Of a stretch of 64,000 nucleotides of DNA, positions 5,198-36,810 are shown piece by piece; positions within the stretch are counted from its first letter, which is position 1, and every line of letters starts with the position of its first letter. The translations under genes were made by a program, and so were the position numbers. Below the pieces are notes generated by a model, which was given only the letters and a program-made list of their open reading frames with translations, was not told where the DNA came from and did no database searches. The stretch is taken from the IMG/VR virus record IMGVR_UViG_3300028025_004617, positions 1 through 64,000 of that record, one strand, 5' to 3'. The stretch is from a virus.

Positions 5198-5703
5198 TAT
5201 ATATTATTATCTCTTTGTGTTATCATTGGTTCCATGGTAGTTTTGTAAGTTTCTTCAAACTTTACTAATTTTTCCATAACGACCAAAGTCTCAGCTTCGA
5301 TTTTTAACATTTCGGCGTTTACATAAACACCACTCTCTTCACCCGCAATAAACACAAAACTCACATCTTCGTCAGTTAGTTTACCATCCAATCTAATTTG
5401 TCTTTCACTTATTGTCATCCCCGGCTCGAATTCAACGATTTGAGAAACTTGTTGTCTAAAATTATCAATTAAACCGGATATTGCAGTCTTTTGTTCATCC
5501 TGTAATCCCATATCAGACTCGTCAGTTGATAACATTTTAACGTCAACATCGTTGATTACGATAACGTCATTATTAATTTCACGTTCTTGTTCGGGTGTTT
5601 GTGGTTCTGCCTGCTCTCTTAGAGTTCTACTTGATGTCTTAGCTTCACTAATATTTCTAAGAGTGTTTAACATCTTCTTGGTAAAATCGTAATCATTTCT
5701 CAT
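5197..5703 (-). CDS. Hypothetical protein, 168 aa
   Basis: Hydrophilic N-terminus (residues 1-45, Arg/Glu/Gln-rich) followed by a beta-rich domain (VIVINDVDVKMLSTDESD onwards) and a helical C-terminus. No recognised family. It overlaps the amidase-like gene start region by 11 nt and the 79-aa gene by 1 nt. The context of likely structural or assembly genes suggests a virion or assembly role, as inference only. Confidence 0.6.
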   Translation of the reverse strand: MRNDYDFTKKMLNTLRNISEAKTSSRTLREQAEPQTPEQEREINNDVIVINDVDVKMLSTDESDMGLQDEQKTAISGLIDNFRQQVSQIVEFEPGMTISERQIRLDGKLTDEDVSFVFIAGEESGVYVNAEMLKIEAETLVVMEKLVKFEETYKTTMEPMITQRDNNI

Positions 5704-6307
5704 TTTCGTGTGTATTGTTAAAAAAGACCCTAAAATTAAATGAAGGGTTTATATCTGTATAAATACTTGAAAAGTTGGATTTACATATAATTCCCTTGAA
5801 ATTTGATATATTTTCCAAGTATCCTTGTGATGGTACTGTTTGTTTGAATATTCCATGTTCGTCACATAATTTTTCACATAATTTTGCAACAGATTTCATC
5901 TGGTCTTCTCCGTATCTATCCCAAAAATAGTAGTTTCTCCAATTACGAATATATGGTTCGGACCTATATGGGTCACCAATCCAATTATTAAGGATACCAG
6001 TGATGGTATTTTTAGAAAGCCAACCCAAGTTCTCGATTGCTATTTTAATCATCTTATTGTCAATCTTTGGGTTCCCAAAAGTTTTGGATGATTGGTTGGT
6101 GTCGAATAGTTGATAAACATCTCCTAGCTTAGAAACAACAAAATGGGGTATATCTTCATACATCCCATTTTTACGATATTTTATCATGTTAATAAAATCG
6201 TCAACTCTTCTTTGTGTATCGTATAGTAATATCTGTGTTTTCTTAGATTTTCTTCGACTGACATTTAAATTTTTATTATCAATAGTTTCAATTTCATATA
6301 TTGACAT
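5693..6307 (-). CDS. Amidase_2/PGRP-fold-like protein with missing zinc ligands, 204 aa
   Basis: The order of elements resembles N-acetylmuramoyl-L-alanine amidases (Amidase_2/PGRP): a beta strand at 26-30, PHFVVSKLGDVYQLFD at 54-69, IAIENLGWL at 88-96, a helix ending KLCDEHGI, then FKGIICKSNFSSIYTDINPS near 168-187. In active enzymes the corresponding sites read HHT, GHSD and DPGP. Here they read YDT, CKSN and DINPS, so at least two zinc-binding histidines are absent. It is probably not a working amidase and may be a structural or binding version. The start lies 10 bp after the stop of the frameshift extension of the upstream gene. Confidence 0.5.
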   Translation of the reverse strand: MSIYEIETIDNKNLNVSRRKSKKTQILLYDTQRRVDDFINMIKYRKNGMYEDIPHFVVSKLGDVYQLFDTNQSSKTFGNPKIDNKMIKIAIENLGWLSKNTITGILNNWIGDPYRSEPYIRNWRNYYFWDRYGEDQMKSVAKLCEKLCDEHGIFKQTVPSQGYLENISNFKGIICKSNFSSIYTDINPSFNFRVFFNNTHENEK

Positions 6308-6317
6308 TGTTCCACAT

Positions 6318-6572
6318 TTAATTAGTGTTATTGTTTACCTCATCATCTGAATTTGGTATAATAACTTTATTATTTTCCAAATCATAAATTACTTGATTTG
6401 GGTTTATCTCATCCTTTTCCAAATATAACTCTTCGTCGTATTGTTTAGATTTTTTTCCTTTATTTGGTCCGTGTCCATAATAATAAGGAATATGTGTACC
6501 TATATTTGAAAACCTGAGGTTACTCGATAATTGGGTTGAATTTAATTCCTGTGTTTGGGGTTCTGTTTCTAC
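6318..6572 (-). CDS. 84-codon extension of the membrane/coiled-coil protein, reached by -1 frameshift
   Basis: After the A10 run the -1 frame stays open for 84 codons, from GTA at 6572-6570 to TAA at 6318-6320. It encodes a hydrophilic tail (VETEPQTQELNSTQ ... NSDDEVNNNTN). The segment contains no in-frame ATG, so independent translation is unlikely. It fills the otherwise empty 260 bp exactly up to 10 bp before the next gene. The composition (Glu, Asn, Gln, Tyr) matches the preceding protein's C-terminus. The full frameshift product would be 568 aa. An A10-versus-A11 base-calling error would give the same picture. Confidence 0.55.
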   Translation of the reverse strand, partial: VETEPQTQELNSTQLSSNLRFSNIGTHIPYYYGHGPNKGKKSKQYDEELYLEKDEINPNQVIYDLENNKVIIPNSDDEVNNNTN

Positions 6573-8023
6573 TTTTTTTTTTCATCATCATTTGATGAAT
6601 TTTGGTCAATCGCTTCGTTAACTACTTTTAACATTTCGTCAATCTCTTTAATTTCTGATTGATAAACAGGTTCGTCAGTTAACTCTTCGGGTGTCGCAAA
6701 TGGTTTAGGTACTTGTTCTTCCCAATATCGTTTTTCCATTTCCTCATCCCAACCATCGTCTTCCATTGATTGTTGATTAAATTCCAAAATGGCTTCCGTT
6801 AAATAATTCTCATCTTGGAGAATTTTTTCCGTTTCAGGGGTTATAGTGGAAAAATTTTCATTTTCTTCTTCAATTGTTGGTTCTTCTTGGAAAATTTTCT
6901 GCATCTCCTCCTCAGTAAAGAATGGTGGTTCGTCTTCTAATCCATCCATTAATGTTCCATCCCAATCGGAGACCTCATCATCTAAATCGTATCTCTCACC
7001 GAATGGTGCAACTGATTCCATTTCTTTCTTAAATGCATCTTCAGCCTCTTTAATTAATTCGTTATCGAATGGTTCATCATATAGTCCTAACTCTTGGTCA
7101 TTCTTCATAATTTCGGCTAACAACTCTCCTCGTTTTTTATATTCTTCTGCTGCAGATTTTAATTTTTCGTTTGGTTCGGTTTGTTTTAATAACGCTTCTT
7201 CTAATATTTTTAAATCATTTTCCGATAAATGTACTCTTGTAGTTTCATCAACAAAGTTTTTTAAATCTTCGGGTGTTGATTCATCATCTTTACCTTTCAT
7301 TACTAATTGGTTGAAGGCGATAATCAAAGCGATAGCCAATGGGTCAAATACAATTACAATTAGAATGATAAAAAATTTAACGACAGTGTTTAATTCAACA
7401 CCAAACGCCTCTGCTACAAATCTAAAACCCCCAACTTCCTTTTCAAGTCCCAAGTTATCGGTCTTAATTTTATTTATCTCGTCATTTTCTTTTGCGTTTT
7501 CTTCTTGTAATAAAGATATCTTGTCGTTAAGTTTTGCAATTTGCTTATCTCTATTATCTATAGAACGAAGTAAACGTGAGTTAACTTTACCACCATCGAT
7601 AATTTTACCTTGGTTAGAATTGAACTCGGTAATTTGTGTCGATAATTGTTTTATTTGAGCTTCGTTCTGTTGAATCTTTGTTGTGTGAATCAATACTTCT
7701 CTATCGACTTGTTGTAATGCAAGATTTTGTTGTTGAAACGCATTTGATAGGTATCCAAAAATGCCTGCTGATGTGATTAACATTAAAATTCCCACAGCAA
7801 ATGATAGATACCATTTATTGAATCCTTTTATCTCATTCCATCTTTGTTTCAAATAAGTCGCAGAAACAAGTTTAGCCAATTCTAAAGAACTTGCCATGAC
7901 CATAACCGCAACCGCAGCACCACTAAATAGTACTCCCAATCCAGTTACTGAAAAATATGCAGCACTACCCGCAATTAAAATTGCCGATAATGCCACTAAG
8001 TATTTTAACCAATTTTTTTCCAT
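6569..8023 (-). CDS. Four-helix membrane protein with coiled coil and acidic tail, 484 aa
   Basis: Hydrophobic segments lie at about residues 7-26, 29-50, 71-93 and 214-238 (FFIILIVIVFDPLAIALIIA). A long coiled coil occupies 98-200, between the third and fourth helices. The remaining 240 residues are soluble, Glu-rich and probably disordered. The 0-frame ends DDEKKK then TAG, within a canonical A-AAA-AAG slippery site (see the extension). An ATTATTTATA motif ends 5 nt before the ATG. Similar membrane proteins occur in marine and T4-like phages. The role is unknown; an envelope function during infection or lysis is a guess. Confidence 0.7.
   Translation of the reverse strand: MEKNWLKYLVALSAILIAGSAAYFSVTGLGVLFSGAAVAVMVMASSLELAKLVSATYLKQRWNEIKGFNKWYLSFAVGILMLITSAGIFGYLSNAFQQQNLALQQVDREVLIHTTKIQQNEAQIKQLSTQITEFNSNQGKIIDGGKVNSRLLRSIDNRDKQIAKLNDKISLLQEENAKENDEINKIKTDNLGLEKEVGGFRFVAEAFGVELNTVVKFFIILIVIVFDPLAIALIIAFNQLVMKGKDDESTPEDLKNFVDETTRVHLSENDLKILEEALLKQTEPNEKLKSAAEEYKKRGELLAEIMKNDQELGLYDEPFDNELIKEAEDAFKKEMESVAPFGERYDLDDEVSDWDGTLMDGLEDEPPFFTEEEMQKIFQEEPTIEEENENFSTITPETEKILQDENYLTEAILEFNQQSMEDDGWDEEMEKRYWEEQVPKPFATPEELTDEPVYQSEIKEIDEMLKVVNEAIDQNSSNDDEKKK
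6572..6582 (-). promoter_or_regulatory. Slippery site A-AAA-AAG for -1 frameshifting
   Basis: On the coding strand ten consecutive A residues (6582-6573) are followed by G and then the stop: GAA AAA AAA AAG TAG in the 0 frame. This contains the heptamer A AAA AAG in the correct phase for -1 slippage, with the stop codon next. After slippage reading continues GTA GAA ACA for 84 codons. No strong downstream stem-loop was seen. Slippage by RNA polymerase on the A10 tract is an alternative. Confidence 0.5.
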
Positions 8024-21211: not shown

Positions 21212-24200
21212 TTAAGTACATGTACCATCTTCAGCACTTATTATTGGTGGTGAGGATTGATTAATAACTACACTAGTAAATGTCATGTTATTAGGTCCTG
21301 TGGTTGTATTTTGACAATATGTGACATTATTACTATCGGTAAATGTTATTTTTTGTCCGGCAATTCCCGCATAGTAATAAATGGTTACATCATATGTACC
21401 TATTTGATTAGTGTCAACTGTTGCACCATTTCCACTTGTGTTAGGGTCAATACCTGAAACATTGGTTACCGCAACATTATTTACAGTAATTGCAGATAAT
21501 GATACGGATATATCTAATGAGTTATTTGTTGCAATTTGAATCGTTACAACGGGAGGACTACAATCACATTGTGGATCTAGACAACCAACACCTTGAGATA
21601 CGAACCCACAATCATCACTTATCACCTCAGTAACACACTCAGTAAAACATAATCCAACATCTTCTGATGGTATATTTGTTGTTATGGTTGTTCCATTTTG
21701 ATTTTTGAATACAAAGGTACACCCACCATAAGGTGCAGATTGTAATATATAACATTCTGATAAAGGATTAGTTGGGGTCGGAGTCGGACTACTTGTAGGG
21801 GGAGGCGTTGCAGTAGGTGGTACTGTTGTTGCTGTTGGTATAGGTGTTGCAGTAGGTGGTACTGTTGTTGCTGTTGGTATAGGTGTTGCAGTAGGTGGTA
21901 CTGTTGTTGCTGTTGGTATAGGTGTTGCAGTAGGCGGTACTGTTGTTGCTGTTGGTGTAGGTGTACTAGTTGGTAAAGGAGTTGAGGTGGCTTCAACCAC
22001 ATCAGTCGATGTTGGTGTAGGTGTTGGCGTACTACTTGGTGTAGGTGTAGGTGTTGGCGTACTACTCTCTGTTGGTGTAGGTGTACTAGTTGGTATAGGA
22101 GTTGAGGTACTACTTGGTGTTGGTGTAGGCGTCGGTGTTGGAGTACTACTTGCCGTTGGTGTAGGAGTTGGCGTACTACTTGGTGTAGGTGTCGGGGTTG
22201 CAGTTGGAGTTGGGGTCGGGGTTGCGGTTGAAGTTGGGGTTGGTTCAATTGGAACACAATTATATAAATCACTACTATATGGTTCCGATATTTTTACACC
22301 ATATCTTGGATTCAAGTAAGCGTATTTCGAACGATTAAAAACATTATTACCTACTAAATTACCCCCTGTCCATAAAGTTGTTGCAGGTATAAATTGTTCA
22401 ATAACTTGTATCCAATATGGACTCATCTTATTGATAAATTCATTAACTGAAGCAAAATTGTATGGTATAAAATTTGTATTTGTTATATAATCATTAAAAA
22501 CTTTTTCTAATGGAAAATAGGATTTACTATATTTTGATATATGCGATTCGGTAATTAATTGATTTAATACGTCATCCAAATATTCCGCAAATGTTAATTC
22601 CGTTTGTGGTTGTAGTTGTCCACCAAAAGTTAATGACAAGTCTCTTGATTGTCTATAAACATCAAATTCAATACCTCGTGATGGAGATAAATAAACATTT
22701 ATATTTTTTCTATTTAATGTTAATTTTGATTCATCCTCATTTGAAACTACACTTCCTTTTAAGTTATCAATTCTATGTTCTAATTCGAAACCATAATCCA
22801 AACCATCTAATGTTCTAAAACTATCAAAATAATCTTCACCATAAGTGTAATCTTTTGGTTTGGTTTTAATTATTTTTGTTCTTCCATTTAAAACGGATAA
22901 TTCAGTATCGATAATATTTGAAGACCTATGGTCTAATGTTAAATCATACCAACCCGCTCCTTTTTGGAAATATATGTCAGAGTCTAAGTTTGTTACTTTT
23001 CTTGGTAGTCCATTTGAATCTATTGGGTATTCTTCTCGACTTAATGTCGTTGTGCCAGTCGTTATTCCCGTAAGATATGCACCACCTGTGTATCCTGTAA
23101 TTACAATATTTGTTTTAGTTCCTCTAATTACCTCATCAATGTCATCTTCAAAATCTTGTTGTGGTAAACCAGTTACGTCATAAACATATTCATCAATTTT
23201 AATTAATGGTTCAGGTGCACCTAAGAATTTCAAAAAGAATTGTATTGCAGAACGTGTTCCTTTTGATTTATATAAATGAGCTAAGTTTGTTAAGATTCTT
23301 CTATAAAATTCATATTCAGCTTCAACCAAAGTTTTACCCAAAGATAAACCAAGGTATTCCGCTTGTTGTCTTGAATATAACGTGTCTTGTAATGATTTCT
23401 CATCAAATAAATTAACCGTTGATAATCCTAGTGTTTGTGATAAATTCTTTAATAATAAATCAGGTACGTTGTTTATACTATCATAACTTACATTTCTCAT
23501 GTAAGCAATGTTATCAATATATTTTTTTACCTTATCAAAATTTTGACCATACAATTGAAATATTGACTCAGCTTTTTTATCTTCACTATCAAATTCAAAT
23601 AATTGTGGTGCAGTTAAAAACCTTACAATTAAATTTGATTTGTACCCATCTATTTCTTCACCTAAACCACTTAACTTTTCAATGTAATCATTAAAGTTTA
23701 CACCAACTATTTGTATGTTCCAATTGTCTTTTGAAACCGGCCAACTAATATCTACATTTACAATATTTGTAGATGTTTGGTCAAAACTATCTCTTGGTAC
23801 TTTAAATGTTGCAGTGTACTTTGGTGTAGTTTCTCTATTAACTAATGTATCCTCTAACTCATCTAAGTTAGTATAGAATTCTTCAGTAATTGCATCGTTT
23901 GGTCTAATTAGAAAACTTGTTGTGGTTCCCGTTGTACCACTAAAAATATTCCCCTCAACTCCAATCCTTACATTACCGTCTGAATTTGTTTCCGTGTAAC
24001 CAACAATATTATATGTGTTACCACTAAAATCAATTACATATTTTCTATAAGATGAATAAAAACTTCTAATAATATTATCCGTTGAAGGTGTGGTATTACT
24101 TTTTGGTTTTTCTATTAATATATCAAATGGATTAAAAAATATAGAAGATGGTGTGTAAAATTGTGTGGTATTTGTAATTGGATTATAAGTTGCTTGATAT

Positions 24201-24613
24201 GCAGTATAATCAGTAATATTATATAATGAATTTTCGTCAGCCAATATTGCTGCAGGGAATTTATTTATAATTTTAGAAACCGATACTGACAATCTATGTT
24301 TTAAAGAACCAAATAGTGATTTACTTGAATCGTCTAGATTCGCTTTAAATTTTATCTTCTCTTTCTTTGAATTACCACTTTGTGTTGTTGGTGCATCCTT
24401 TTCCTCTTTTAATGTATCTAAAGTGATGTATTCAGAAAATGGTGTCGTTTTAAAATCTTTACTATCCTTTTCGGGAATGACTTTATCGACGGCAAAGTTC
24501 GTATTAGTCAGTTGACTACTACCATCGGTAATTTGTCTACCAACTAAACTGTCACTAAACGTTTCCGCACCTGACGCAGCTTGACTCGGAACTTTGTATT
24601 TTGTTACTGCCAT
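21212..24613 (-). CDS. Baseplate/tail protein with long Thr-Pro-rich linker, 1133 aa
   Basis: The N-terminal two thirds (about 800 residues) are a virion domain containing [20 protein letters not shown], reminiscent of the P2 gpI-like tail proteins that anchor fibres to the baseplate. Residues of about 790-960 are almost pure Thr/Pro/Ser with Ala/Val. Within them are four tandem 13-residue units [13 protein letters not shown], encoded by nearly identical 39-bp DNA repeats. The C-terminal 170 residues form a Cys-rich beta domain ([18 protein letters not shown]). It overlaps the 306-aa gene by TAATG. The linker may carry a receptor-binding tip or be glycosylated. Confidence 0.65.
21802..21957 (-). 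repeat. Four tandem 39-bp repeats within the Thr-Pro linker
   Basis: Units begin at 21802, 21841, 21880 and 21919 and differ at only a few bases. Each encodes 13 residues (Thr/Ala/Pro/Val). The near-identity contrasts with the codon-scrambled TP tracts around it and suggests recent duplication. Confidence 0.85.
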
Positions 24614-25533
24614 TATTCTGTAATATTATCTAAATTTAACGTTTCGTCAATACTTTCTCTTTCCTCACGAACCTCATATAATGTTTCATTAAATTCGTCC
24701 TTAACTTCGTATAGGTTGTATTGTTTATAGATATTTTTATTGTTATCGTAGATTGTGTAAATACCCGGAGTAATAGCCTTAGTTTGGTCACCATAAAGTG
24801 CGTGTGCCAATGTGGATGCATCATGTTCTACCATTTCAACCTCAACTGTTGTTGGGTTAAAAAATGTATTTGTTAATATAATTTTTTGTCCTGGGTCACC
24901 GATAAATGGAATAACGTTCGGTCTACTTGATGGTGCCGATGATGGTGTTAATGTTACAAATAAAAATGCAGTGGCTTGGTCCGTATATTGATATCTAACC
25001 GCCTTATCAGATGAATTTGTTAAATTTGATGTTACAGGTGTACAATAAAACGAAGATGTTACCATTCTATAAAAGTTAGGTATTTTTGTTCTATTGTCAG
25101 ATGCATTTATATATTCAACTCTATAACCAACTAATCCTTGTGGTGTAAATTTACCTCTATCTGCAGTAGGAACATTTGAAGTATTAATAACTAATCCTCT
25201 TACAGATGGTAATGAAGCTAACACACCACAATCGGCAATCGTTGTTCTAATTTGTTTTGGTCTAATGTGTAGAGTGTAAATTCCCAATTTTGAGAAGTCA
25301 CTTGCCTCAAGTTTTAAATTATACAAACCACCTAATATTTCGTTATTAGGTGCACTTGAATCATTTGTAGTATTTGCGTTATGAAAAACCGGTGTTAAAA
25401 CCTTTTCAGATACTAATTTTTTTAATTCGACCGGTGCGGTTGCTGTCCTACCCGATGTGAAATGATAGAAAATATCCACATCTGAAGGAGAAACGTCTGC
25501 CGGTCTAACTATACCATAACTTCCAACTGCCAT
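24613..25533 (-). CDS. Structural protein, 306 aa
   Basis: Begins [20 protein letters not shown]. It is beta-rich with an acidic helical C-terminus ([20 protein letters not shown]). No enzymatic motif or membrane segment. It overlaps the next gene as TAATG, so the two products are probably made in proportion and act together in the baseplate. A TATATTTATT motif lies 11 nt upstream. The call rests mainly on context. Confidence 0.6.
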
Positions 25534-25544
25534 ATTATTTTATT

Positions 25545-25554
25545 AATAAATATA
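25545..25554 (-). promoter_or_regulatory. TATATTTATT motif, 11 nt before ATG 25533
   Basis: Coding-strand copy of the start-proximal motif, in the 25-bp gap before the 306-aa gene. Confidence 0.4.
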
Positions 25555-25558
25555 AATC

Positions 25559-26149
25559 TTATTGTTTTTTAACGTTAAAAAATCCATTTCCATAGACACT
25601 TAACTCACCCATGTTATCAATTTCACCTAATCTAAAGTTCATCTCCATTACTCCCTGTTTACCCCTCTCAACAAAAACGTCAGAATACACCCTTGGTTGT
25701 TCAATAAATCCAAGAAAATGTTCGTTTCTTGTTAAAACTTTATTAATCACATACTCCGTTGCAAAATTGGTTGCGTCTCCCGTTGTATATCCCGAAGGTA
25801 TTGTTGAGTAATAGTTTGCAGTTTGACCCGTGATTTGTGTAAATCCATTAGCCATGTCTCTATATGAAAGTCCATCTATCGTGTAACCCGTATATGTTAC
25901 CCCACTAATTGTTCCGTATTGTAAAGTTTGGGTATATCCTGTGGTACCATATTTTTTTAATTCGGATAATCTACTCGAACCTATTGCAATAAATGATAAA
26001 GATGGTGTGGAACCTGATGGTCGTGCTTTAACCCCCGATACGTATTCCAAATCATTCAAATACGATTGTCCTCCACCCGGTAAGGTATCAGACGAAATAT
26101 TCGTATAAGGTAAAGTGAATCCAGTTAAAGTTCCAAAGTAGGTTGCCAT
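25559..26149 (-). CDS. Structural protein, 196 aa
   Basis: Gly/Thr/Tyr-rich beta protein (GTISGVTYTGYTIDGLSYRD) without catalytic motifs, typical of tail or baseplate components. It stands between the 306-aa protein and the SprB-repeat fibre. GATATTTACT ends 5 nt before the ATG. Exact role unknown. Confidence 0.55.
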   Translation of the reverse strand: MATYFGTLTGFTLPYTNISSDTLPGGGQSYLNDLEYVSGVKARPSGSTPSLSFIAIGSSRLSELKKYGTTGYTQTLQYGTISGVTYTGYTIDGLSYRDMANGFTQITGQTANYYSTIPSGYTTGDATNFATEYVINKVLTRNEHFLGFIEQPRVYSDVFVERGKQGVMEMNFRLGEIDNMGELSVYGNGFFNVKKQ

Positions 26150-26154
26150 ACACT

Positions 26155-26164
26155 AGTAAATATC
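26155..26164 (-). promoter_or_regulatory. GATATTTACT motif, 5 nt before ATG 26149
   Basis: A weaker copy of the start-proximal motif (last two bases deviate). Confidence 0.35.
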
Positions 26165-26233
26165 TTTAGATATTTTTTACTAAAATATAACTAATAAAAT
26201 ATCACAAATAAAGGTTAAACAACCCAACTAAAA

Positions 26234-29200
26234 TTAGTTAATTTCTTCCAAATCACTACAGTTCATCATACCTAACGATGCACACGGTGAGTTGACTTCA
26301 CTACAAGGTCCACCTGGAGAATCTTTACACAAATAAGTAGTGGTACCACCACCTCCGCCACCGCCAGCTGGTGCTTCGTAAGGGTCTCCACCTCCACACC
26401 ATTCACTGTTATCACATTTACCACCGATTCCGATTACCATTCCAACATCTTCAACGAATTGGAATCCAGAAACACCATATCTAAACGCTACCGCTATAGT
26501 ACTACAAATATTAATTAATATACCTCCAGATGGACCAATAGATTGTGGGAAATCGCTATAAGGTCGACTAACGTATGCATTGTTAGTTTTTCTATATTCA
26601 ATATATAATTCTTGACCATTGTTTGTTAACATACTTGTTGGAATGAAAATATCGTAACAAGTACCTAAACAAGCTGTAGTGCTAGCCACTCCGCTATTTG
26701 TTACACAACCATTAGCGTCGGTAACTTCAAGACAGTATCCATATTCATCAATATTACTAACAGAAACAGATGGTGATCCTGAAGTTACATTTGTGTATGT
26801 TCCAACTAAAGTTCCTCCACAAGTATTATAAGGTGCTGACGTGTCAGCGTATAATCTATATGTTTTAGGGAATACTCCACCAGATGATGACAATGTAATC
26901 GCTCCGTCCGCACCACCATTACAAGTTGCTAATGTGTTAACCGTAATAGTTGCAGTTTGTTCAGTTGGTTGGGTAATTACTATTGTTGTAACAACATTTA
27001 CACAACCCACACCGTCTTGAACGTATATTGAATATGTTCCGATAGTTAAACTACTGAACGTACCACTTGATTGGTAATTTACCCCGTCTCTTGAATATGT
27101 ATATCCTGAACCACTTCCACCTGATGGATTTGATACGGTAATTGAACCGTTAGATCCACCATAACAACTTACATTATCATATGATACACTTGCAGTAGGT
27201 GCTGATTTAGTAATATTAACGTTTATTGTTGAAGATTCACAACCATTTGTATCTCTTGATTGTAAACTATATGTTGTTGAGGATAAGTCACTAAATGTAC
27301 CACTTGATTGCCAAGTACCTCCATTTATTCTAAATTGGTAATCTCCATTACCACCTCCAGCTGTTACGGTAATACTACCATCACCACCATTCCAACAAGT
27401 TGGTGCCGATGATGAAGATAATGAAATTGTAACTACAGCTGGTTGACTTATTGCGATAGAATATGTTCTTTCACAACCGGCACTATCTTTTACATATAAT
27501 GTATATGTTCCGGCAGTTAAACTTGAATAAGTTCTAGATGTTGTTAAAACTTGGTATGTACCACCTGCATTTATTTTTGTAGAATATGGTCCACCTTGAC
27601 CACCTGAAGGTGAACTAACAACTATATTACCATTATCACCACCATTACATGTAACATTTGTTTGTGTGTATGTTGCACCTACTTGAGTTCTATTTAATCC
27701 TGTAGTGTTTGTTCTAACACAACCACTTGAATCTTTTGTATATGTGGTGTATATTCCACTTGATAAATTACTAAATGTTGTTCCCGCTTGATAGTTTGTA
27801 CCATCAATTGAATATGTATAAGGTGAAACTCCTCCAGTAACACTCGATAATGTTATCGAACCGTCTGACCCACCATAACAAGTTGGGTTTGTTCCTGTTG
27901 CTGTAAATGAAATAATAGTAGGTTCGGTGACAGTTACAGGGGTACTTCCCACTTCGCCGTATGAGTCTTTAGCATATATTGTATATGACCCTGCTGTTAA
28001 ACTACCAAATATGTTACTAACTTGATAGTTTGTTCCATCTTTAGAATATGTGTAATTTGCCGTTCCGCCAACCACACTTGAAACAGTTATTGCTCCGTTA
28101 CTTCCTCCATGACATGTAACATTTGTAGTTGCAGATGCCGTTACTGATATTGTCACGTTGGTAATGCTAATTGTTATAGTTTTGTCAAATGTTAAACTTG
28201 AACCATCAGTTACTCGTACCCTAATTGAATATGATGACTTAGTTTCGTAGTTAAACACAACTGCACTTTTTAATACGCCAGATGTGATTGTGAAATTATT
28301 ATTATCTGTATAAGTTGCACTATCATGTAATGTAAATGTCATTGCACCACCTTCTTGGTCTGTGGCTGAGAATGTACCAATTGTTGTTCCTGTCGGAACA
28401 TTCTCAGATATTGATACTGAACTTAAGGCAATATCTGTTGGTGCTTCGTTTACGTTTGTTACATTTATTGTAAACGTAGTTTCGTAAGTTGAACCTCCAG
28501 CATCTGTTGTTCTAACTCTAATTGAATAAGATGATTTAGCTTCGTAATTGAATACCGACGAACTTCTTAATGATGAACCGCTAATGTTAAATGATGCATT
28601 ATCCGTATCACCAGAACCTGAAACTAATGTGTATGTGAATGTATCACCAGAGTCAACATCGGATGTACTGAACGTACCAATAGTTGTGTTAATTGATGAA
28701 TTTTCAGCAATTGATGTAGAGCTCAATGATAATGCGTATGGTGTTTCATTTACATTATTAACATTGATTGTAAAAATTTTTGTAAATGTTTGACCCGCAC
28801 TATCGGTAGTTCTAACTCTAATTGAATATGAAGTTTTCGACTCATAATTAGGTATTACCGCATTTTTTAATGCACCCCCACTTGTTAAAGTAAAGCTCGC
28901 ATTATCGGTATCACCTGACCCACTTACCAAACTAAATGTGTGTGTATCACTTTCGTCAAGCGTAACTGCACTAAATGTACCTATTGTTGTACCCGTTGCA
29001 GTATTTTCATTTATCGAATTATTACTTAATAAGATATCTGTTGGTGCAAAATTAGTTGTAGGACTCGGAGTAGGAGTTGGTGTAGGGGTTGCGGTTACAA
29101 TACTTAAATCAATATCGAAACTACAATCTCCTGTAGGTGTTGGCGTTGGTGTTGGTGTTGCAGTTACAATATCCAAATCAATATCGAATCTACAATCATT

Positions 29201-30058
29201 AGTAGGTGTAGGGGTTGGGCTCGGAGTAGGACTCGGAGTAGGACTCGGAGTTGGGGTTGGACTTGGTGTAGGGGTAGGACTTGGCGTAGGACTCGGAGTA
29301 GGAGTTGGTGTCGGTGTACTACTTGCTGTTGGGGTTGGTGTTGCTGTTACAATATTAGTATCTATCTCAAAATTACAATCACCAGTAGGTGTTGGTGTAG
29401 GTGTAGGAGTTGCGGTTACAACATCTAAATCCACACCAAAGTTACAATCTGGAGTAGGTGTAGGGGTAGGGGTCGGAGTTGCGGTTACAATATCCAAATC
29501 AATGTCGAATCTACAATCATTTGTAGGGGTTGGTGTCGGTGTAGGGGTTGCAGTTACAATGTCCAAATCAACATCAAAATTACAATCATTTGTAGGAGTT
29601 GGTGTAGGTGTAGGTGTTGCAGTAACCACATTCAAGTCCACATCGAAATTACAATCCGCTGTAGGTGTTGGTGTTGGTGTAGGAGTTGCGGTAATGAAAA
29701 TTAATTCAATATCGAAATCACAATTCGCCGTTGGTGTAGGTGTAGGGGTTGGTGTGCTTGTTGGTGTCGCGGTTGGTTCTGGAACTGCTTCTGATTTAAT
29801 TCTAATGTCATTTTCAATACCCACAGAACAAAACTTACCAGCGGCGTCATATAGATAAATTCTCTCCGCCGTATTTGGTATTTCAACTAAAACTCCATTT
29901 CCTGTTACTAATTGAGTATATGTTAATCCTGTTGCAACTAATGTACTACCTTGTGGATTAAATAATAATGCAAGATTTCCTGCAGGCGGTAACGTATAGT
30001 AGATACTATATATACTATTCGAAAATCCCACATCAATTCTTACATAAAAATATCTCAT
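26234..30058 (-). CDS. Modular fibre/adhesin with Thr-Pro, cadherin-like and SprB-type repeats, 1274 aa
   Basis: Residues 1-92 are an N-terminal domain similar to that of the 201-aa protein ([15 protein letters not shown]). Residues 93-335 hold eight copies of a C-x-F-x-[VI]-D ... VTA(TP)n unit. Residues 338-650 hold three cadherin-like repeats of about 100 aa ([29 protein letters not shown]). About 655-1130 has six SprB-type repeats with C-x-GG-x-[ND]G-x-I ([15 protein letters not shown]). The end is a unique domain with a Gly-rich loop. SprB repeats define gliding adhesins of Flavobacterium. This is the best candidate for a receptor-binding fibre. Confidence 0.75.
29050..29770 (-). repeat. 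69-bp (23-aa) tandem repeat array, copy A
   Basis: Eight units of C-x-F-x-[VI]-[DE]-x-x-x-[VI]-TA followed by (TP)4-5. One spacer is expanded to a run of about 40 residues of TP/SP. Third codon positions vary freely between units. The same unit forms array B in the 717-aa protein. Confidence 0.85.
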
Positions 30059-30070
30059 TTACTATACCTA

Positions 30071-30286
30071 TTAGGAATTTTGTTTTATCCAATCATAACA
30101 CTCGTTTATTGTGTGAAAAACATCACTATTATAACTATTTTCATCATCAAATAAACAAACCATGTAGTCCTCGGATTCTGCCGCTTTAAAAATACTATAC
30201 TCTTTATTATTGATATTTTGTATTTCAATATTATTTGCCACATCAATTGTGTTATATAATATATTAGTCATTTCTTTTATTTCCAT
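30071..30286 (-). CDS. Small hypothetical protein, 71 aa
   Basis: Short acidic alpha/beta protein (YMVCLFDDENSYNSDVFHTI) between two giant virion genes. The start at 30286 makes a TAATATG junction with the upstream stop at 30288; an ATG five codons in (MTNILYN) is an alternative. It could be a chaperone or assembly factor for the neighbouring fibres, as T4 gp38 and gp57A are, but there is no sequence evidence for this. Confidence 0.5.
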   Translation of the reverse strand: MEIKEMTNILYNTIDVANNIEIQNINNKEYSIFKAAESEDYMVCLFDDENSYNSDVFHTINECYDWIKQNS

Positions 30287-30287
30287 A

Positions 30288-33200
30288 TTATATTGAAGGT
30301 GTTGTTGTATCGCTATTATTAAATGTACCCGTATTTGTTGTTAAATTATAGGTTAAAGTTGCAACTCTTTCTGCACTATCATTTCTATTAGTGCTTGTTA
30401 TTACTTTAGATACTGAAGTAATATTGTATTTAGAAGTGAAAGTTGTGTTTGTGAATACAAAGTTAGATGGTCCAGTTATTGTTCCACCCTTATACAATGT
30501 TGCCGCTACATTTACAGGATTAGTTCCAACTGTACCATACCAATACGCCCTTAAATCTATTACAACACTAGTTTCATTTGGATAGTCTTGTCTAAATTTA
30601 ACTAAATTAACTAAAACGGATTCATAACCAGTTCCTTGATTATCACCACCCCATCTGATAATTGGTGTTCCTGACGTTGGCCATTGACTTGATCTACCAA
30701 AACCAACATACGATTGTGTGGTTGTTTGTCCAATATTAGGTAACGCAACTCTAGATTTTGTATCCAAATCTCGACCATTCGTAAATTGATAAGTTAATAC
30801 TATATAATCAGCATCAAATGTAAATGTATTTTGACCTGTTGTAACCGTGCCTGTTTTAGTACAATTATTTGCATCAGTTACCGTTACTGTATAAACAGTA
30901 TTAGCCGATAATCCCGTAATTGTGTTTGTTGGTGATGACACAGCTTGCGTACGAGACACCTCAGGTGTCTGAGTGGTTGACCAAACGTATGTGTATGGTG
31001 CGGTACCATTTGCAACAGTAACCGTTGCGGTTCCATTATTACCACTTGTTGGGTTCGTTGACGTGAACGCCAATGTTAAATTACATGTTTGTGTGACCGT
31101 ACATGTTGAACCTGTTCCGATAGTATATGTTATTTTATTTTTTGGATTTTCAGATGTTATAGAATCTAAAACTAAACTTGTAATTGGTTCATTAAAATTA
31201 ACCTGACTACCAAAAGGTATAAATGTTTTTGTTTCAGATGCGGATGATGTAACATTAAATGTTCCCGTTAATACATTACCTGTGGTATATGCTTTCACAA
31301 CCATACTTACAGGATTATGTAGTGCACTATCATTACCACCAGACTTACCAATAATATAAAAACCTCTTGTAGCACTTGAAGTTTGGTAACCACAAAATTC
31401 ACTAAGATTAATTGATATTGTTTCAGTTTTATGATAGTAAAATGCATCATTGTCTATCCAATCAATTAATGGTCGATACCAACCTGTTGCAGCCTCACTA
31501 TATGATGTTGTAGTGAATCCTGTATATAATTGAAAATCATCAAATGTTGTTGGTGTTTTTATAAATCCTTTTTTAAGTGACGTATTTGTGTATAGACTAT
31601 TTGGGTCAAATCCTTTTTGTGCTTCAATTGAGTTAGTAAATGTAAGTATTGAATTTTTATCAGTTCCTGACATATACCAATTACTTGAATAATCTGTATT
31701 TGTTGTTACAATTGGTTCATTTGTTGTGGTTGTTGTGCTGTTTGAATTAGACATAACATATATTCCATCAATCGTTCCATTTGTTGTGTGGTAAAATGTT
31801 CTATATGGTGTTGACCCTGAAACGGCGTAATAACCATTTAATACTTTTTGACATCCAAAATCATCATAATATAGTTTTTTACCAATAATTGCTCCACTTG
31901 TTCTGGAATCATAAAACACACTAACTCTTGTTGGATTTGTTTCTACTTTTAATTCATGTGTAAAATATGAATCTAAAACACCGATTTGGTATTCACTTAG
32001 TGGTGTACAATATTTTCCAGTATTTTGTGCATACGCAACTAATGAATTAAGTTTCTTTGTGGCCTTTGCGTTGGCGTCATTTTGACTTATACAACTAAAT
32101 TCAGTTCCAGATTGTACAGTTAATGTTGTTGACTGTCCAATTTCTAAATCACAACAACTATTATTAATTGTTTGTGTTAATGTTGTATCGTTATAATAAA
32201 TTGTTCCTGTCCCACAATATGGTATTGGTTTACCACTAGTATATGGTAAAACTGTTAGTTTATTAAAATGTGTAACTAACGTCGGGTCGTCTACTTTAAT
32301 TGAATATTGAAATTCAAATGTTAACGGGTCTTCCTCAACGACAGCGTTTGTAAATGACAACTCTTTTGATGTTATTTTTCCACCAACTTGTTGATAATAG
32401 TAAACCCCATCACAATAATATCCATTATTAATCGTAGTTAATTGTAAATCCCTATATAGAATGGTATCGTTACCTGAAGTACTAATTTCAATATATGGTT
32501 TGTTTGTGAAATGATGTAAAAATAATTTACAAGGTTCTCTAAATACAATTGTTCTGGTTGTGAAAATTAATTTTAAAATGCTATAGAGTAAAAATGCCGC
32601 AAAAATACCTCCAGCAACAAGATTTATACTTGCAATTAATGATTTGGTTAATTCAATTAATAACACCTTTCTAACAAATGGTCCAACAAGATAATCAAAA
32701 ACAAATTGTCCTGCCACTTGGCTAAGAGTTTGATACGTACCAGCGGCTGCACCATATGGAATTAACATACCAAGTCCAAAAATAGTACTTGCGGCTGCCC
32801 ATTCATTGAATTCCCATTCACTTTCATATCCATGAACCACACCCTCCAACATTTTTGACATCGCATGTGTTGACCCAACAATAGGATTTGCACTTTTTGT
32901 TAGAAAACTATAACTAGTAAAAACACTATCATTTGACATGGTTTTATTTGTGGCATCATACCCCATGTAATATCTATATTGTTGTGGTTGGGATAATGCA
33001 GAAGTTTCTAAAATTTGACTTATTTTACCCACCTCATCCATAAATGGGATGGTACACGCATCCGATGTTTGGTCATTTGGATAAAAAAAAGATTTAGGAC
33101 CTATTGTTTCTTTGGTTGTCTTAGCTTTACCAAATAATTTTTTTCTTACCGTTGTTTGTTTTTGTGTGCCATAAGCTCTATCAAATTCACCACCAACTTT

Positions 33201-33851
33201 ATATACTTTAGTTCCATAACCATAATAATATGGTAATGCGGGATTTTCAAAATAAGACCCAGACCATACTTTTGTATTAACTGACCAATTTTCAATTGGT
33301 GTCAACGAATATAATTTTGTTTTTAATTTTGATGTTGACGCAATCGCATCATATGGTGAATAAACATGTAGTCCTGTTTCGTAACTATAAATTTGTGTTG
33401 TACAATTATATGCTAGTGTTACACTTGCAGAACTTGGTGGTGTATTAAATTTACCCACCGCTATATTAATATTTAATACTGAACCTTTATTAGTTTGGTC
33501 ACCATTAACAATAACGTAGAATTTTTTTGTTCCACTTGTTTTATCGTTTAATATAATATTTTCTAATTTTATTTCATTTGTAGATATCTTATATAATGAA
33601 TTTAAATCTAACGATACTGAAATATATGCTTTGTTTGGGTCTTCGAAATTTATTGATATGTAATCTACCGACCCACTATAGCTAACCTCAAATTCTAAAT
33701 AACCATGATTTTTGTTTCCTAATTGTAAAGATTTTGTTTTGTTAGCAAACTTTAAATTTTTTGCATAAGTTCCTGTTTCGGAAAACGATGGTTTGTTCGA
33801 TGTGAAATCTGTCGCAGTAAAGTTTGTTGTTACTGTATTACTATATGGCAT
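30288..33851 (-). CDS. Large virion protein with internal hydrophobic region and adhesin-like C-terminus, 1187 aa
   Basis: The N-terminal 340 residues are beta-rich. Residues of about 350-432 contain several hydrophobic stretches (STIFGLGMLIPYGAAAGTY, INLVAGGIFAAFLLYSILKL), unusual for a virion surface protein. A SprB/PKD-like repeat follows near 925-1000 (ANGTAPYTYVWSTTQ; YTVTVTDANNCTKTG). The end is a beta domain (FTFDADYIVLTYQFTNGRDL). AATATTTATA ends 4 nt before the ATG. It is probably a tail or baseplate component; the hydrophobic part could enter the host membrane. Confidence 0.6.
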   Translation of the reverse strand: MPYSNTVTTNFTATDFTSNKPSFSETGTYAKNLKFANKTKSLQLGNKNHGYLEFEVSYSGSVDYISINFEDPNKAYISVSLDLNSLYKISTNEIKLENIILNDKTSGTKKFYVIVNGDQTNKGSVLNINIAVGKFNTPPSSASVTLAYNCTTQIYSYETGLHVYSPYDAIASTSKLKTKLYSLTPIENWSVNTKVWSGSYFENPALPYYYGYGTKVYKVGGEFDRAYGTQKQTTVRKKLFGKAKTTKETIGPKSFFYPNDQTSDACTIPFMDEVGKISQILETSALSQPQQYRYYMGYDATNKTMSNDSVFTSYSFLTKSANPIVGSTHAMSKMLEGVVHGYESEWEFNEWAAASTIFGLGMLIPYGAAAGTYQTLSQVAGQFVFDYLVGPFVRKVLLIELTKSLIASINLVAGGIFAAFLLYSILKLIFTTRTIVFREPCKLFLHHFTNKPYIEISTSGNDTILYRDLQLTTINNGYYCDGVYYYQQVGGKITSKELSFTNAVVEEDPLTFEFQYSIKVDDPTLVTHFNKLTVLPYTSGKPIPYCGTGTIYYNDTTLTQTINNSCCDLEIGQSTTLTVQSGTEFSCISQNDANAKATKKLNSLVAYAQNTGKYCTPLSEYQIGVLDSYFTHELKVETNPTRVSVFYDSRTSGAIIGKKLYYDDFGCQKVLNGYYAVSGSTPYRTFYHTTNGTIDGIYVMSNSNSTTTTTNEPIVTTNTDYSSNWYMSGTDKNSILTFTNSIEAQKGFDPNSLYTNTSLKKGFIKTPTTFDDFQLYTGFTTTSYSEAATGWYRPLIDWIDNDAFYYHKTETISINLSEFCGYQTSSATRGFYIIGKSGGNDSALHNPVSMVVKAYTTGNVLTGTFNVTSSASETKTFIPFGSQVNFNEPITSLVLDSITSENPKNKITYTIGTGSTCTVTQTCNLTLAFTSTNPTSGNNGTATVTVANGTAPYTYVWSTTQTPEVSRTQAVSSPTNTITGLSANTVYTVTVTDANNCTKTGTVTTGQNTFTFDADYIVLTYQFTNGRDLDTKSRVALPNIGQTTTQSYVGFGRSSQWPTSGTPIIRWGGDNQGTGYESVLVNLVKFRQDYPNETSVVIDLRAYWYGTVGTNPVNVAATLYKGGTITGPSNFVFTNTTFTSKYNITSVSKVITSTNRNDSAERVATLTYNLTTNTGTFNNSDTTTPSI

Positions 33852-33855
33852 CTAT

Positions 33856-33865
33856 TATAAATATT
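33856..33865 (-). promoter_or_regulatory. AATATTTATA motif, 4 nt before ATG 33851
   Basis: Same sequence and spacing as before the 21184 start. Confidence 0.5.
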
Positions 33866-33876
33866 ATTTTCATTTT

Positions 33877-36030
33877 TTATGATTCACAATATATGAATCC
33901 AGCAGGTCCACATAAACCATATTTAGTTGGTGTTCCTGATGTTAATTCGTAAATTATTGGTGTAATTATATTACTATCGGATTCTTTATAGAATCCATTG
34001 TCCACAGGTATTGTTAGATTTTCATCTTGATACCATGTGATTGATTCAAATCCACTATTTTGATAATCTGTTGGGTTAAAGTATACTTTTCTTATTGATG
34101 TACAACTTAAACAAATATCATTTAAATCACTACTTGGTGCGTAATAGCAGAAGTCTTTACTAATTGGTGCCGCCTTTTTAATTATCGCATAGTATGTTGT
34201 TCTACCAATAGGTACATGTGTTAATACTGGGTTGGTTTGAATTAAACTACCCTCACCTTTAACATTACTCCATCCAATAAATGTAGTATCATTTGTTGTT
34301 ACTGCAGATATTGTTGTGGACCCATTAATTAATACTTGTTTAGTTAAGCTTTGAGAGCTTGTTGTTCCATCGGTAACATATCCTGTTGCGGTTGAATTAA
34401 TTTTATGTATTTCATATGTAACAATATTGTTAAATGGATCGTTTACCTCAGTTATTGTGAATGAATTTACACACTCAACTTCGGTAGGTGTTGGGGTTGG
34501 TGTAGGTGTACTAGTAGGTGTAGGGGTTGGTGTTGATGTACTAGTAGGTGTAGGTGTTGGGGTACTTGAAGCTGTTGGTGTTGGTGTTGCGGTTACAACA
34601 TTCGTATCCACCTCAAATTCACAACTACCTGTTTGAGTTGGGGTTGGGGTTGGTGTAGCTGTAACTACATTGAAATCCACCTCAAATCCACAATCAATTG
34701 TTGGTGTAGGAGTAGGTGTAGGAGTTGCGGTAACAACATTCAAGTCGACTTCGAATCTACAATCAATTGTTGGTGTAGGGGTTGGTGTTGGTGTCGCAGT
34801 GACTACATTCAAGTCAACTTCGAATCTACAATCAATTGTTGGTGTAGGGGTTGGTGTAGGGGTGGCGGTAACTACGTTTAAATCTACATCAAATCTACAA
34901 TCAATCGTTGGTGTTGGTGTAGGGGTTGGTGTTGCGGTTACGACATTCAAGTCTATATCAAATCGACAGTCTATTGTTGGAGTAGGAGTTGGTGTCGGTG
35001 TAGCTGTAACTACGTTTAAATCTACATCAAATCTACAATCAATCGTTGGTGTTGGTGTAGGGGTTGGTGTTGCAGTAACCACATTCAAATCTACTCCAAA
35101 ATTACAATCAGGAGTAGGAGTAGGTGTAGGGGTTGGAGTTGCGGTAACTACATTCAAGTCCACATCAAATGCACATTCCGGTGTAGGGGTTGGAGTTGGA
35201 GTTGGCGTCCTTGTTGGTGTAGGGGTAGGTGTACTACTTGGTGTAGGGGTTGGCGTTGCGGTAGGTGTAGGTGTTGGAGTCGAACTTTGAGTTGGACTTG
35301 GTGTTGGGGTTGGGCTAGTTGTAGGTGTAGGTGTGGCGGTAGGTGTAGGCGTTGGCGTACTTGAAGCTGTTGGTGTTGGTGTAGGTGTAGGGGTCCTTGT
35401 TGGAGTTGGTGTTGGTGTTACAAATGCAGGACAATTAACCGTTATAACTTTAGTTATTTGTTCATTTGTCCATGGTGACACTAATTTTACAATTACCGTT
35501 TTATCTCCATTACTTGTATATTGTTTTGTGGCTTGTCCGTTAACCGGTAAATTTGAAGATGTACCATCTCCCCAATAAACCGTAAATACTGCGGTTGCCA
35601 TCGGTTTTAACTTACCAACATTTGTTGTATTATATACAATTAAATCAAATGTACTTGGGTTACAGGTACCGCTATATGAGAAATTAGCACTAAACTTATC
35701 ATCATTGATGTTACCATCAAATTCAACCATTGGTCCATATTCATCAACCTTTGCATTTAAATAAAGTGGTAATTGATAATCACCATAGACTTTAGTTGGG
35801 TCCACAACATTCCATGTATTTGGTGTGGGTGTACCCCATTTATAATACCCAGAAGTAACCGTACTTCCCGTTATATTATAAATCGTTGTGCCTGTAGGTA
35901 TTGTTGTATTTGATAATGTATTCCAATAAATAATATTACCTTCATAGTCATACCATGCTTGGTCCGTTAATGAGACCAATTTTACTTGCAGTATACTCTC
36001 CCTTTGTATGGTATGTTTTATTCTTTTCAC
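33877..36030 (-). CDS. Fibre-like protein with PKD-like domain and Thr-Pro repeats, 717 aa, GTG start
   Basis: The start codon is GTG (CAC at 36028-36030), 4 nt after TATTTATA. Residues of about 145-200 resemble a PKD-type beta-sandwich ([21 protein letters not shown]). Residues of about 205-285 are pure TP/SP linkers. About 285-490 holds nine copies of the 23-residue unit [13 protein letters not shown](TP)n shared with the 1274-aa fibre. The C-terminal 170 residues are a Cys-containing beta domain ending [12 protein letters not shown] surface fibre or spike component is likely. Confidence 0.65.
34560..35190 (-). repeat. 69-bp (23-aa) tandem repeat array, copy B
   Basis: Nine units of C-x-F-x-VD-x-x-VVTA(TP)5-T-[IP]-D, one Cys per unit. 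The protein sequence is highly uniform but synonymous codons differ between units. It is related to array A at 29.0-29.8 kb. Confidence 0.85.
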
Positions 36031-36034
36031 CTAC

Positions 36035-36044
36035 TATAAATAAC
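36035..36044 (-). promoter_or_regulatory. GTTATTTATA motif, 4 nt before GTG 36030
   Basis: TATTTATA core on the coding strand with the same 4-nt spacing as two other structural genes, here before a GTG start. Confidence 0.45.
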
Positions 36045-36111
36045 GTAAATTAACTTTTCATCATTATATATGATTTTAAAATTTTAAAATAGTTAATAAA
36101 CCAAAATAAAC

Positions 36112-36138
36112 AAAAAACCCCTCATAATAAAGGGGTTT
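36112..36138 (-). terminator. Rho-independent terminator after the 201-aa gene
   Basis: 8-bp stem AAACCCCT / AGGGGTTT with an 8-nt loop. On the minus strand it is followed by TTTTTT (part of the stem plus U-tract). It ends the unit 25 bp past the stop at 36164. The rest of the 36031-36163 gap is AT-rich and holds only the upstream motif of the 717-aa gene. Confidence 0.8.
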
Positions 36139-36163
36139 AATTGTATATGTTTTTTATAATTTA

Positions 36164-36769
36164 TTATTGAGCGTATGTCTGACAACCATCATTATAGGTG
36201 ACTGTAACTACGGTTCCTGATGAAGTTGTAAATGTACCACCATTTAATATAGTACCATATGTTAATAATGTAATTTGATTGGCCGGATTAATGTAAGTGA
36301 TACCTCCCCATCCTTGAACTTCTGCGTTGTGATTTACGTTAGTGATACCAGCCTCGATTAAAACCGGACTTTGTATTGTTGCAGTGTCTTCCGCCACCTG
36401 ACCACAACCCACAGTTGTATGACCATCAACATTTGCTATGGTTATTGTTATATCATCAACCAATTCTTCACTTAATGCAAAATAGTAATAACCGGCCTCA
36501 AACATATAACTTAATGTTGCCGTTGTTGGAACTGGTGGTGCTATAGTCCAACTTCTCGTTGTTGTACATGTTCCTGTACTAGCAATTGTACCACCTGTTA
36601 AAGTTTCGTAAGTTGTGTTTATTGAGTGTCCGGTGGATAATTGTGTTTTAGTGACCCCTGTAGCTAACCAATAGGTTGTTCCTGCACTCGTTGTTCCCGA
36701 AATGTTAAACGGGCCAGCAACATATGTTGCTCCTGTATATGCCGATTGTAATGTGAATGTTAATCTCAT
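36164..36769 (-). CDS. Fibre-associated protein related to the fibre N-terminus, 201 aa
   Basis: The first 75 residues (YWLATGVTKTQLSTGHSI) resemble the N-terminal domain of the 1274-aa fibre ([15 protein letters not shown]). This suggests a shared attachment module. The C-terminal half is a beta-rich domain (VLIEAGITNVNHNAEVQGWG). There are no enzymatic motifs. It is followed by a strong terminator and preceded by CATATTTATA at 15 nt. Confidence 0.6.
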   Translation of the reverse strand: MRLTFTLQSAYTGATYVAGPFNISGTTSAGTTYWLATGVTKTQLSTGHSINTTYETLTGGTIASTGTCTTTRSWTIAPPVPTTATLSYMFEAGYYYFALSEELVDDITITIANVDGHTTVGCGQVAEDTATIQSPVLIEAGITNVNHNAEVQGWGGITYINPANQITLLTYGTILNGGTFTTSSGTVVTVTYNDGCQTYAQ

Positions 36770-36784
36770 CGTTTGTTGTTTTTA

Positions 36785-36794
36785 TATAAATATG
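36785..36794 (-). promoter_or_regulatory. CATATTTATA motif, 15 nt before ATG 36769
   Basis: Coding-strand copy of the start-proximal motif, in the 41-bp gap before the 201-aa gene. Confidence 0.45.
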
Positions 36795-36810
36795 TTATTT
36801 TTTTATTTAA

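What the first reader, a model, noticed from the sequence alone, without database searches (positions are those of the whole stretch)
6318..6600. Probable -1 programmed frameshift at an A10 slippery run extends a membrane protein by 84 residues
Seen in sequence: the 0 frame reads GAA AAA AAA AAG TAG, a canonical A-AAA-AAG heptamer in phase with an immediate stop. The -1 frame stays open for 84 codons, has no in-frame ATG, and stops 10 bp before the next gene, filling a gap that is otherwise empty in this gene-dense region. Inference: two products, 484 and 568 aa, differ in their C-terminal tail. No strong downstream stem-loop is visible, so transcriptional slippage is also possible.
Basis: partly seen in the sequence, partly recalled or inferred. 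Interest (0 to 1): 0.75.

Follow-up and report, generated by a model that had tools for sequence, protein, structure and literature searches.

The report
Phage gene with a slipping-polymerase switch
A phage gene appears to make two proteins of different length at a run of ten A's, and the run, the second reading frame and a small RNA hairpin just before the run are kept in about 40 related phage lineages, which points to the RNA polymerase (not the ribosome) slipping on purpose.

Summary
The gene at window 8023-6569 (minus strand) ends GAA AAA AAA AAG TAG, and an 84-codon -1 frame continues to 6318, ten bases before an Amidase_2 gene. It is not chance or a sequencing slip. In 41 sequence clusters (<85% identity) of related uncultured phages the run is A10 (33), A11 (7) or A9 (1). 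The tail lies in -1 in 35, in frame in 6, in +1 in none. Tail codons are under purifying selection in most pairs (dN/dS 0.14 against the nearest relative). In 48 loci (399 kb) every A/T run of 10 or more is at this site. No downstream structure is shared. Instead an RNA hairpin abuts the 5' side of the run (32 of 35 -1 clusters; 10 of 13 in a set fetched after the idea arose); its arms change sequence but keep pairing. That is the geometry of hairpin-stimulated RNA polymerase slippage, and is wrongly placed to stimulate a ribosome. Best reading: programmed transcriptional slippage, probably one extra A, giving 484- and 568-residue membrane proteins and perhaps tuning the downstream amidase. 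Products and direction are not shown experimentally. The body also carries a TacA/DUF1778 antitoxin toxin-binding segment.

The parts
6569..8023 (-). 0-frame membrane protein, 484 aa (short product); stop TAG at 6571-6569 directly after the run
6573..6582 (-). A10 slippage run (heptamer A AAA AAG in phase inside it)
   Evidence: conserved as A9-A11 in 41 clusters
6585..6598 (-). 5-bp hairpin UCAUC-AAAU-GAUGA, 3' end 2 nt before the run (-4.2 kcal/mol); counterpart of 5-10 bp hairpins in relatives, most abutting the run
   Evidence: z -1.96 for this one copy alone, strong only in the family
6318..6572 (-). -1 frame tail, 84 codons plus TAA; motif LY(W/L)E.D..NPNQVIYDLENN.VIIP
   Evidence: dN/dS 0.14 against L007
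7136..7261 (-). TacA/DUF1778 antitoxin C-terminal (toxin-binding) segment, aa ~255-296, without the DNA-binding RHH domain
7304..8002 (-). transmembrane plus coiled-coil module (aa ~8-240), replaced by an unrelated transmembrane module in many relatives
   Evidence: topology inferred from sequence; AlphaFold model too weak to use
5693..6307 (-). Amidase_2-like gene downstream; its ATG lies 10 nt after the tail stop here and inside the tail end in most relatives

Best explanation
A programmed transcriptional slippage site. RNA polymerase transcribing the A10 run holds an all-rA:dT hybrid of 9-10 bp. The hairpin that forms just behind it in the exit channel strains the hybrid, and a share of transcripts gains (most likely) one A. 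Unslipped mRNA gives the 484-residue protein, which stops directly after the run. A11 mRNA is read straight through into the 84-codon tail and gives about 568 residues. Ribosomes on slipped mRNA end at the start of the amidase gene, so the ratio may also set amidase expression by translational coupling. Shown: the run, the tail frame, selection on the tail, the hairpin and its covariation. Inferred: that slippage occurs, its direction, rate and the coupling. The protein is probably a membrane-anchored acidic scaffold that carries an antitoxin-like peptide able to bind GNAT toxins (inferred).
For: Run kept at 10-11 A (one 9) in 41 clusters while neighbouring sequence diverges, with codon phase varying. 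Tail in -1 in 35, in frame in 6, +1 in 0; against equal frames p ~7e-12; extra A's are what T. thermophilus dnaX slippage adds (PMC5009743). 0-frame stop within 12 nt of the run in all 35. Tail dN/dS 0.14-0.36 in most pairs. Hairpin abutting the run: mean 24-nt folding energy -5.6 kcal/mol at that point against -1.1 elsewhere; combined p ~6e-23 in the first set and ~1e-7 in clusters fetched later. Swapping arms between loci destroys it: own -5.97, swapped mean -2.43 kcal/mol, P <= 5e-5. In-frame relatives keep the run and most have a near stop in at least one other frame, comparable to T. thermophilus dnaX and Y. pseudotuberculosis tssM3.
Against: No RNA or protein data. The clusters are related, so the combined p values overstate independence. 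Three -1 clusters (L064, L089, L101) lack a close hairpin, and the window's own hairpin is weak (8 of 200 shuffles fold as well). The one studied hairpin-stimulated case (Roseiflexus IS) deletes a base, whereas here an insertion, or a two-base deletion, is needed. The A AAA AAN heptamer is also present, so some ribosomal shifting could add to it.
Confidence: 0.78

Rival explanations
1. Programmed -1 ribosomal frameshifting: tandem slippage on A AAA AAN makes the long protein from unaltered mRNA.
For: The heptamer is in phase in the -1 clusters, the direction is -1, and a stop follows closely. Some sites have purine-rich sequence upstream that could act like a Shine-Dalgarno element.
Against: No shared downstream structure. 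9-11 A's are kept where 7 nt suffice. The last base of the heptamer is A, C, G or T, though Asn codons re-pair poorly (own knowledge). The hairpin's 3' arm lies about 6-12 nt 5' of the P site, inside the ribosome when the site is decoded, so it could not act as a structure there, yet its pairing is selected.
Confidence: 0.15
2. DNA-level phase variation: the run changes length between phage genomes by replication slippage and switches the tail on or off.
For: L015, about 98-99% identical to L014, has A10 instead of A11, which moves the tail to +1. A few lineages have the tail in frame.
Against: Frames 35/6/0 are far from even; the immediate 0-frame stop and the hairpin are kept, which phase variation does not need.
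Confidence: 0.04
3. Sequencing or assembly error in a homopolymer; the gene is one intact frame.
For: A10 is error-prone, and raw reads could not be inspected here.
Against: The same split with a stop just after the run in 35 clusters from many separate metagenome assemblies; A11 relatives also have the tail in -1.
Confidence: 0.02
4. The tail has no function as protein; recoding only lets ribosomes reach the amidase start (translational coupling).
For: Tail stop lies 10 nt before, or about 30 nt inside, the amidase gene. Shigella spa13/spa32 works this way in part (PMC5009743).
Against: Tail amino acids are conserved well outside the overlap (LYWE..NPNQVIYDLENN motif) and dN/dS is below 1 in most pairs.
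Confidence: 0.12

Closest known systems
Citrobacter rodentium tssM1 and Yersinia pseudotuberculosis tssM3 transcriptional slippage (PMC4256274)
   Same: A-run (11 A's in tssM1) in a membrane-protein gene; slippage gives two length variants, the longer in one species and the shorter in the other, as in the -1 and in-frame types here.
   Different: Cellular secretion gene with few sites known; the authors found no Shine-Dalgarno-like sequence or mRNA structure near the tssM1 run. Here it is a phage gene, conserved over about 40 lineages, with a hairpin.
Shigella spa13/spa32 slippage (described in PMC5009743)
   Same: Slipped mRNA gives a long C-terminal extension whose coding end overlaps the next gene's start, and slippage affects that gene's expression.
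   Different: No hairpin is mentioned there; type III secretion gene; unrelated proteins.
Roseiflexus IS transposase, hairpin-stimulated slippage (Penno 2015, as described in PMC5009743)
   Same: Nascent RNA stem-loop directly 5' of the slippage motif.
   Different: Motif is T5C5, and one base is deleted. Here the motif is A10 and the tail needs one extra A or two fewer.
Thermus thermophilus dnaX (described in PMC5009743)
   Same: 9-nt homopolymer, extra A's in mRNA, near stops in the other frames; like the in-frame relatives L047 and L051.
   Different: Long form is the 0 frame; no hairpin is mentioned.
Lambda-type tail chaperone frameshift (G/GT)
   Same: Phage gene with two C-terminal variants by a -1 change of frame.
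   Different: Ribosomal; different gene; no long homopolymer with upstream hairpin (own knowledge).

Membership tests
Programmed transcriptional slippage | Homopolymer of about 9 or more A/T inside a coding region | tested here: met
   A9-A11 in 41 of 41 clusters with a tail
Programmed transcriptional slippage | Conserved alternative frame under protein-level selection | tested here: met
   dN/dS 0.14-0.36 in most pairs, some pairs weaker
Programmed transcriptional slippage | mRNA population with differing run lengths | not testable with these tools
   no RNA reads available
Hairpin-stimulated slippage (Roseiflexus type) | Nascent RNA stem-loop directly 5' of the motif | tested here: met
   32 of 35 -1 clusters, arms covary; that it forms and acts is not shown
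Hairpin-stimulated slippage (Roseiflexus type) | Single-base deletion as outcome | tested here: not met
   tail is in +1 in none of 41 cluster representatives; one strain variant, L015, is +1
-1 programmed ribosomal frameshifting | X XXY YYZ heptamer in phase | tested here: met
   A AAA AAN in phase in the -1 loci tabulated
-1 programmed ribosomal frameshifting | Downstream stem-loop or pseudoknot stimulator | tested here: not met
   mean z -0.6 and -0.5 over 25 loci; pseudoknots not modelled
TacA/DUF1778 antitoxin | C-terminal toxin-binding segment | tested here: met
   12 of 12 members match PF08681; profile hits solved DUF1778 antitoxins at E down to 6e-8
TacA/DUF1778 antitoxin | N-terminal ribbon-helix-helix DNA-binding domain | tested here: not met
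   only profile positions 38-79 of 80 match; the residues before it are a membrane domain
TacA/DUF1778 antitoxin | Partner GNAT toxin gene next door | tested here: not met
   neighbours are a sigma factor and an amidase

The most novel reading that the evidence does not exclude
A conserved hairpin-plus-A10 cassette is a dedicated, tunable RNA polymerase slippage module of a large family of T4-like phages. It inserts one base, sets a ratio of two forms of a membrane-anchored antitoxin-mimic protein, and couples that ratio to amidase expression; it would be the first such programme known in a double-stranded DNA phage.
Probability: 0.35. Interest if true: 0.85.

Novelty: new variant of a known kind. 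Interest (0 to 1): 0.72.

Why it matters
Phage recoding is usually taken to be ribosomal. A phage family that instead makes its RNA polymerase slip, with a covarying hairpin at a fixed place, offers dozens of natural variants for learning how an exit-channel hairpin drives slippage on a homopolymer. It also means such genes are read as truncated in metagenome annotation. The same protein carries an antitoxin-like peptide, so the two forms may matter in phage counter-defence.

Tried and rejected
Sequencing error: rejected by comparison. Downstream stem-loop: no shared signal. Intrinsic terminator: the hairpin is followed by A's (not T's) in the gene's direction, and T's come before the hairpin on the other strand, so neither strand has the terminator order. 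Even-frame phase variation: rejected on frame counts. PHROGs gave no convincing family for body or tail; PADLOC none; NCBIfam none for the antitoxin segment. AlphaFold model of the body was too weak (mean pLDDT 52, pTM 0.29), so no fold search was made. Cultured phages: no relative of the amidase; of the membrane protein only the transmembrane module matches, at about 30% identity. GTDB genomes: no relative of the amidase. A fixed 7-bp/7-nt hairpin register does not fit all loci (loop and stem length vary), so the arm-swap test was used instead. No paper found on slippage in double-stranded DNA phages; the library lacks most subscription journals and the Penno 2015 paper itself, so this is a weak negative.

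Full report
What is there. The minus-strand gene at window 8023-6569 ends GAT GAT GAA AAA AAA AAG TAG with exactly ten A's (6582-6573). The -1 frame is open for 84 codons to a TAA at 6320-6318, has no Met, and stops 10 nt before the ATG (6307) of an Amidase_2-like gene. The two products would be 484 and 568 residues.

Is it chance or error? Loci fetched through the downstream amidase, and some through the protein itself, come from many separate metagenome assemblies. In the first 48 amidase loci (399,222 bases) all 50 A/T runs of 10 or more are at this site and none elsewhere. Over both sets, 68 sites fall into 41 clusters at 85% identity: A10 in 33, A11 in 7, A9 in 1. The tail lies in -1 in 35, in frame in 6 and in +1 in none. 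In all 35 the 0-frame stop lies within 12 nt of the run, usually at once. L125, which has no tail, has no A run of nine or more there. Lys and Glu codons in the window's genes are AAA and GAA in about 78% each, so an unbroken run in so many lineages is not a by-product of codon usage.

Is the tail coding? Between the window and L007 the tail has dN/dS 0.14, with 15 of 23 changes at third positions; most other pairs give 0.14-0.36, a few are weaker or, over 33 codons, uninformative. The tail has an acidic linker, a motif LYWE.DD.NPNQVIYDLENN.VIIP and, in most lineages, a basic end KVISRNVSSRRR.FR. That basic end overlaps the amidase start (AGAAATG), so part of its conservation comes from the amidase. 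The window belongs to a group whose tail stops just before that overlap.

Ribosome or RNA polymerase? Three features favour the polymerase. First, the run is kept at 9-11, the length of the RNA-DNA hybrid (9-10 bp; PMC5009743), while a ribosome needs seven. The codon phase of the run changes between lineages (GAA AAA AAA AAN; TTA AAA AAA AAA G; GAT AAA AAA AAA). Second, there is no shared structure downstream. Third, a hairpin abuts the run on its 5' side. The mean folding energy of a 24-nt segment is -5.6 kcal/mol there and about -1.1 elsewhere. The hairpins differ in sequence, stem length (5-10 bp) and loop, but nearly all end 0-3 nt before the run. Swapping arms between loci ruins them (own -5.97, swapped -2.43 kcal/mol, P <= 5e-5). 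The idea came from the first set; 10 of 13 later -1 clusters also have it (combined p about 1e-7), and the arm-swap test also holds in those 13 alone (P about 1e-4). These p values treat related lineages as independent and so are too small, but the varied arms show repeated compensation. When a ribosome decodes the run, this hairpin would lie inside it; when RNA polymerase holds the run as hybrid, the hairpin sits at the exit channel, as in an intrinsic terminator. The ribosome geometry rests on general knowledge, not on a test here.

Direction. A tail in -1 needs one extra A or two fewer. Extra A's are what T. thermophilus dnaX makes (PMC5009743), and poly-A runs are described as gaining A's in Citrobacter tssM1 (PMC4256274). 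The studied hairpin case, the Roseiflexus IS, loses a base. I think the hairpin here favours insertion by pulling the hybrid back one step, but that is inference.

In-frame relatives. Six clusters read the tail in the 0 frame. They keep the run, and most have a stop close by in at least one other frame (for L051, 2 and 7 nt; for the first run of L047, 9 and 2 nt), so slippage would there give the short form. The same reversal between species is known for tssM1 and tssM3. Three of these six lack the hairpin (L051, L115, L132) and in L047 it is weak.

What the protein may do. The membrane module is found at about 30% identity in several large phages. In many relatives it is replaced by an unrelated transmembrane module on the same acidic chain. 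That chain holds a segment matching TacA/DUF1778 antitoxins: 12 of 12 members match PF08681, and the profile finds solved DUF1778 antitoxins at E down to 6e-8, but without the DNA-binding half. A tethered antitoxin-like peptide that neutralises GNAT toxins is a reasonable idea and is untested. The genome is T4-like by my reading of its genes (recombination, ribonucleotide reductase, helicase and baseplate-like genes), with a sigma factor next to this gene; the host is not known.

Judgement. Confirmed observation; interpretation moved from ribosomal frameshift to programmed transcriptional slippage with a hairpin. It is a new variant of a known kind, resting on comparison only; the mRNA has not been looked at.

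Noticed in passing
window 53455-53464: A second A10 (minus strand) near the end of an exonuclease/RNase H-like gene (54451-53429), just before the next ATG; its conservation was not tested.
   Followed up: partly
window 7136-7261: TacA/DUF1778 antitoxin toxin-binding segment inside a phage membrane protein, without its DNA-binding domain and without a toxin gene beside it.
   Followed up: partly
L008, L019, L031, L051 and others against the window: Two unrelated transmembrane modules are exchanged on the same acidic C-terminal chain.
   Followed up: partly
L047:3578, L106:2360, L127:2390, L115:2260, L132:2787: Extra A9/A10 runs earlier in the same gene, in frame, with nearby stops in one or both other frames; slippage there would truncate the protein.
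   Followed up: no
L014, L015, L017: Near-identical strains differ in run length (A11 against A10), which moves the tail from -1 to +1; real variation or an assembly slip.
   Followed up: partly
window 21212-39342: Several structural-type proteins carry long Thr-Pro repeats (TPTPTP).
   Followed up: no
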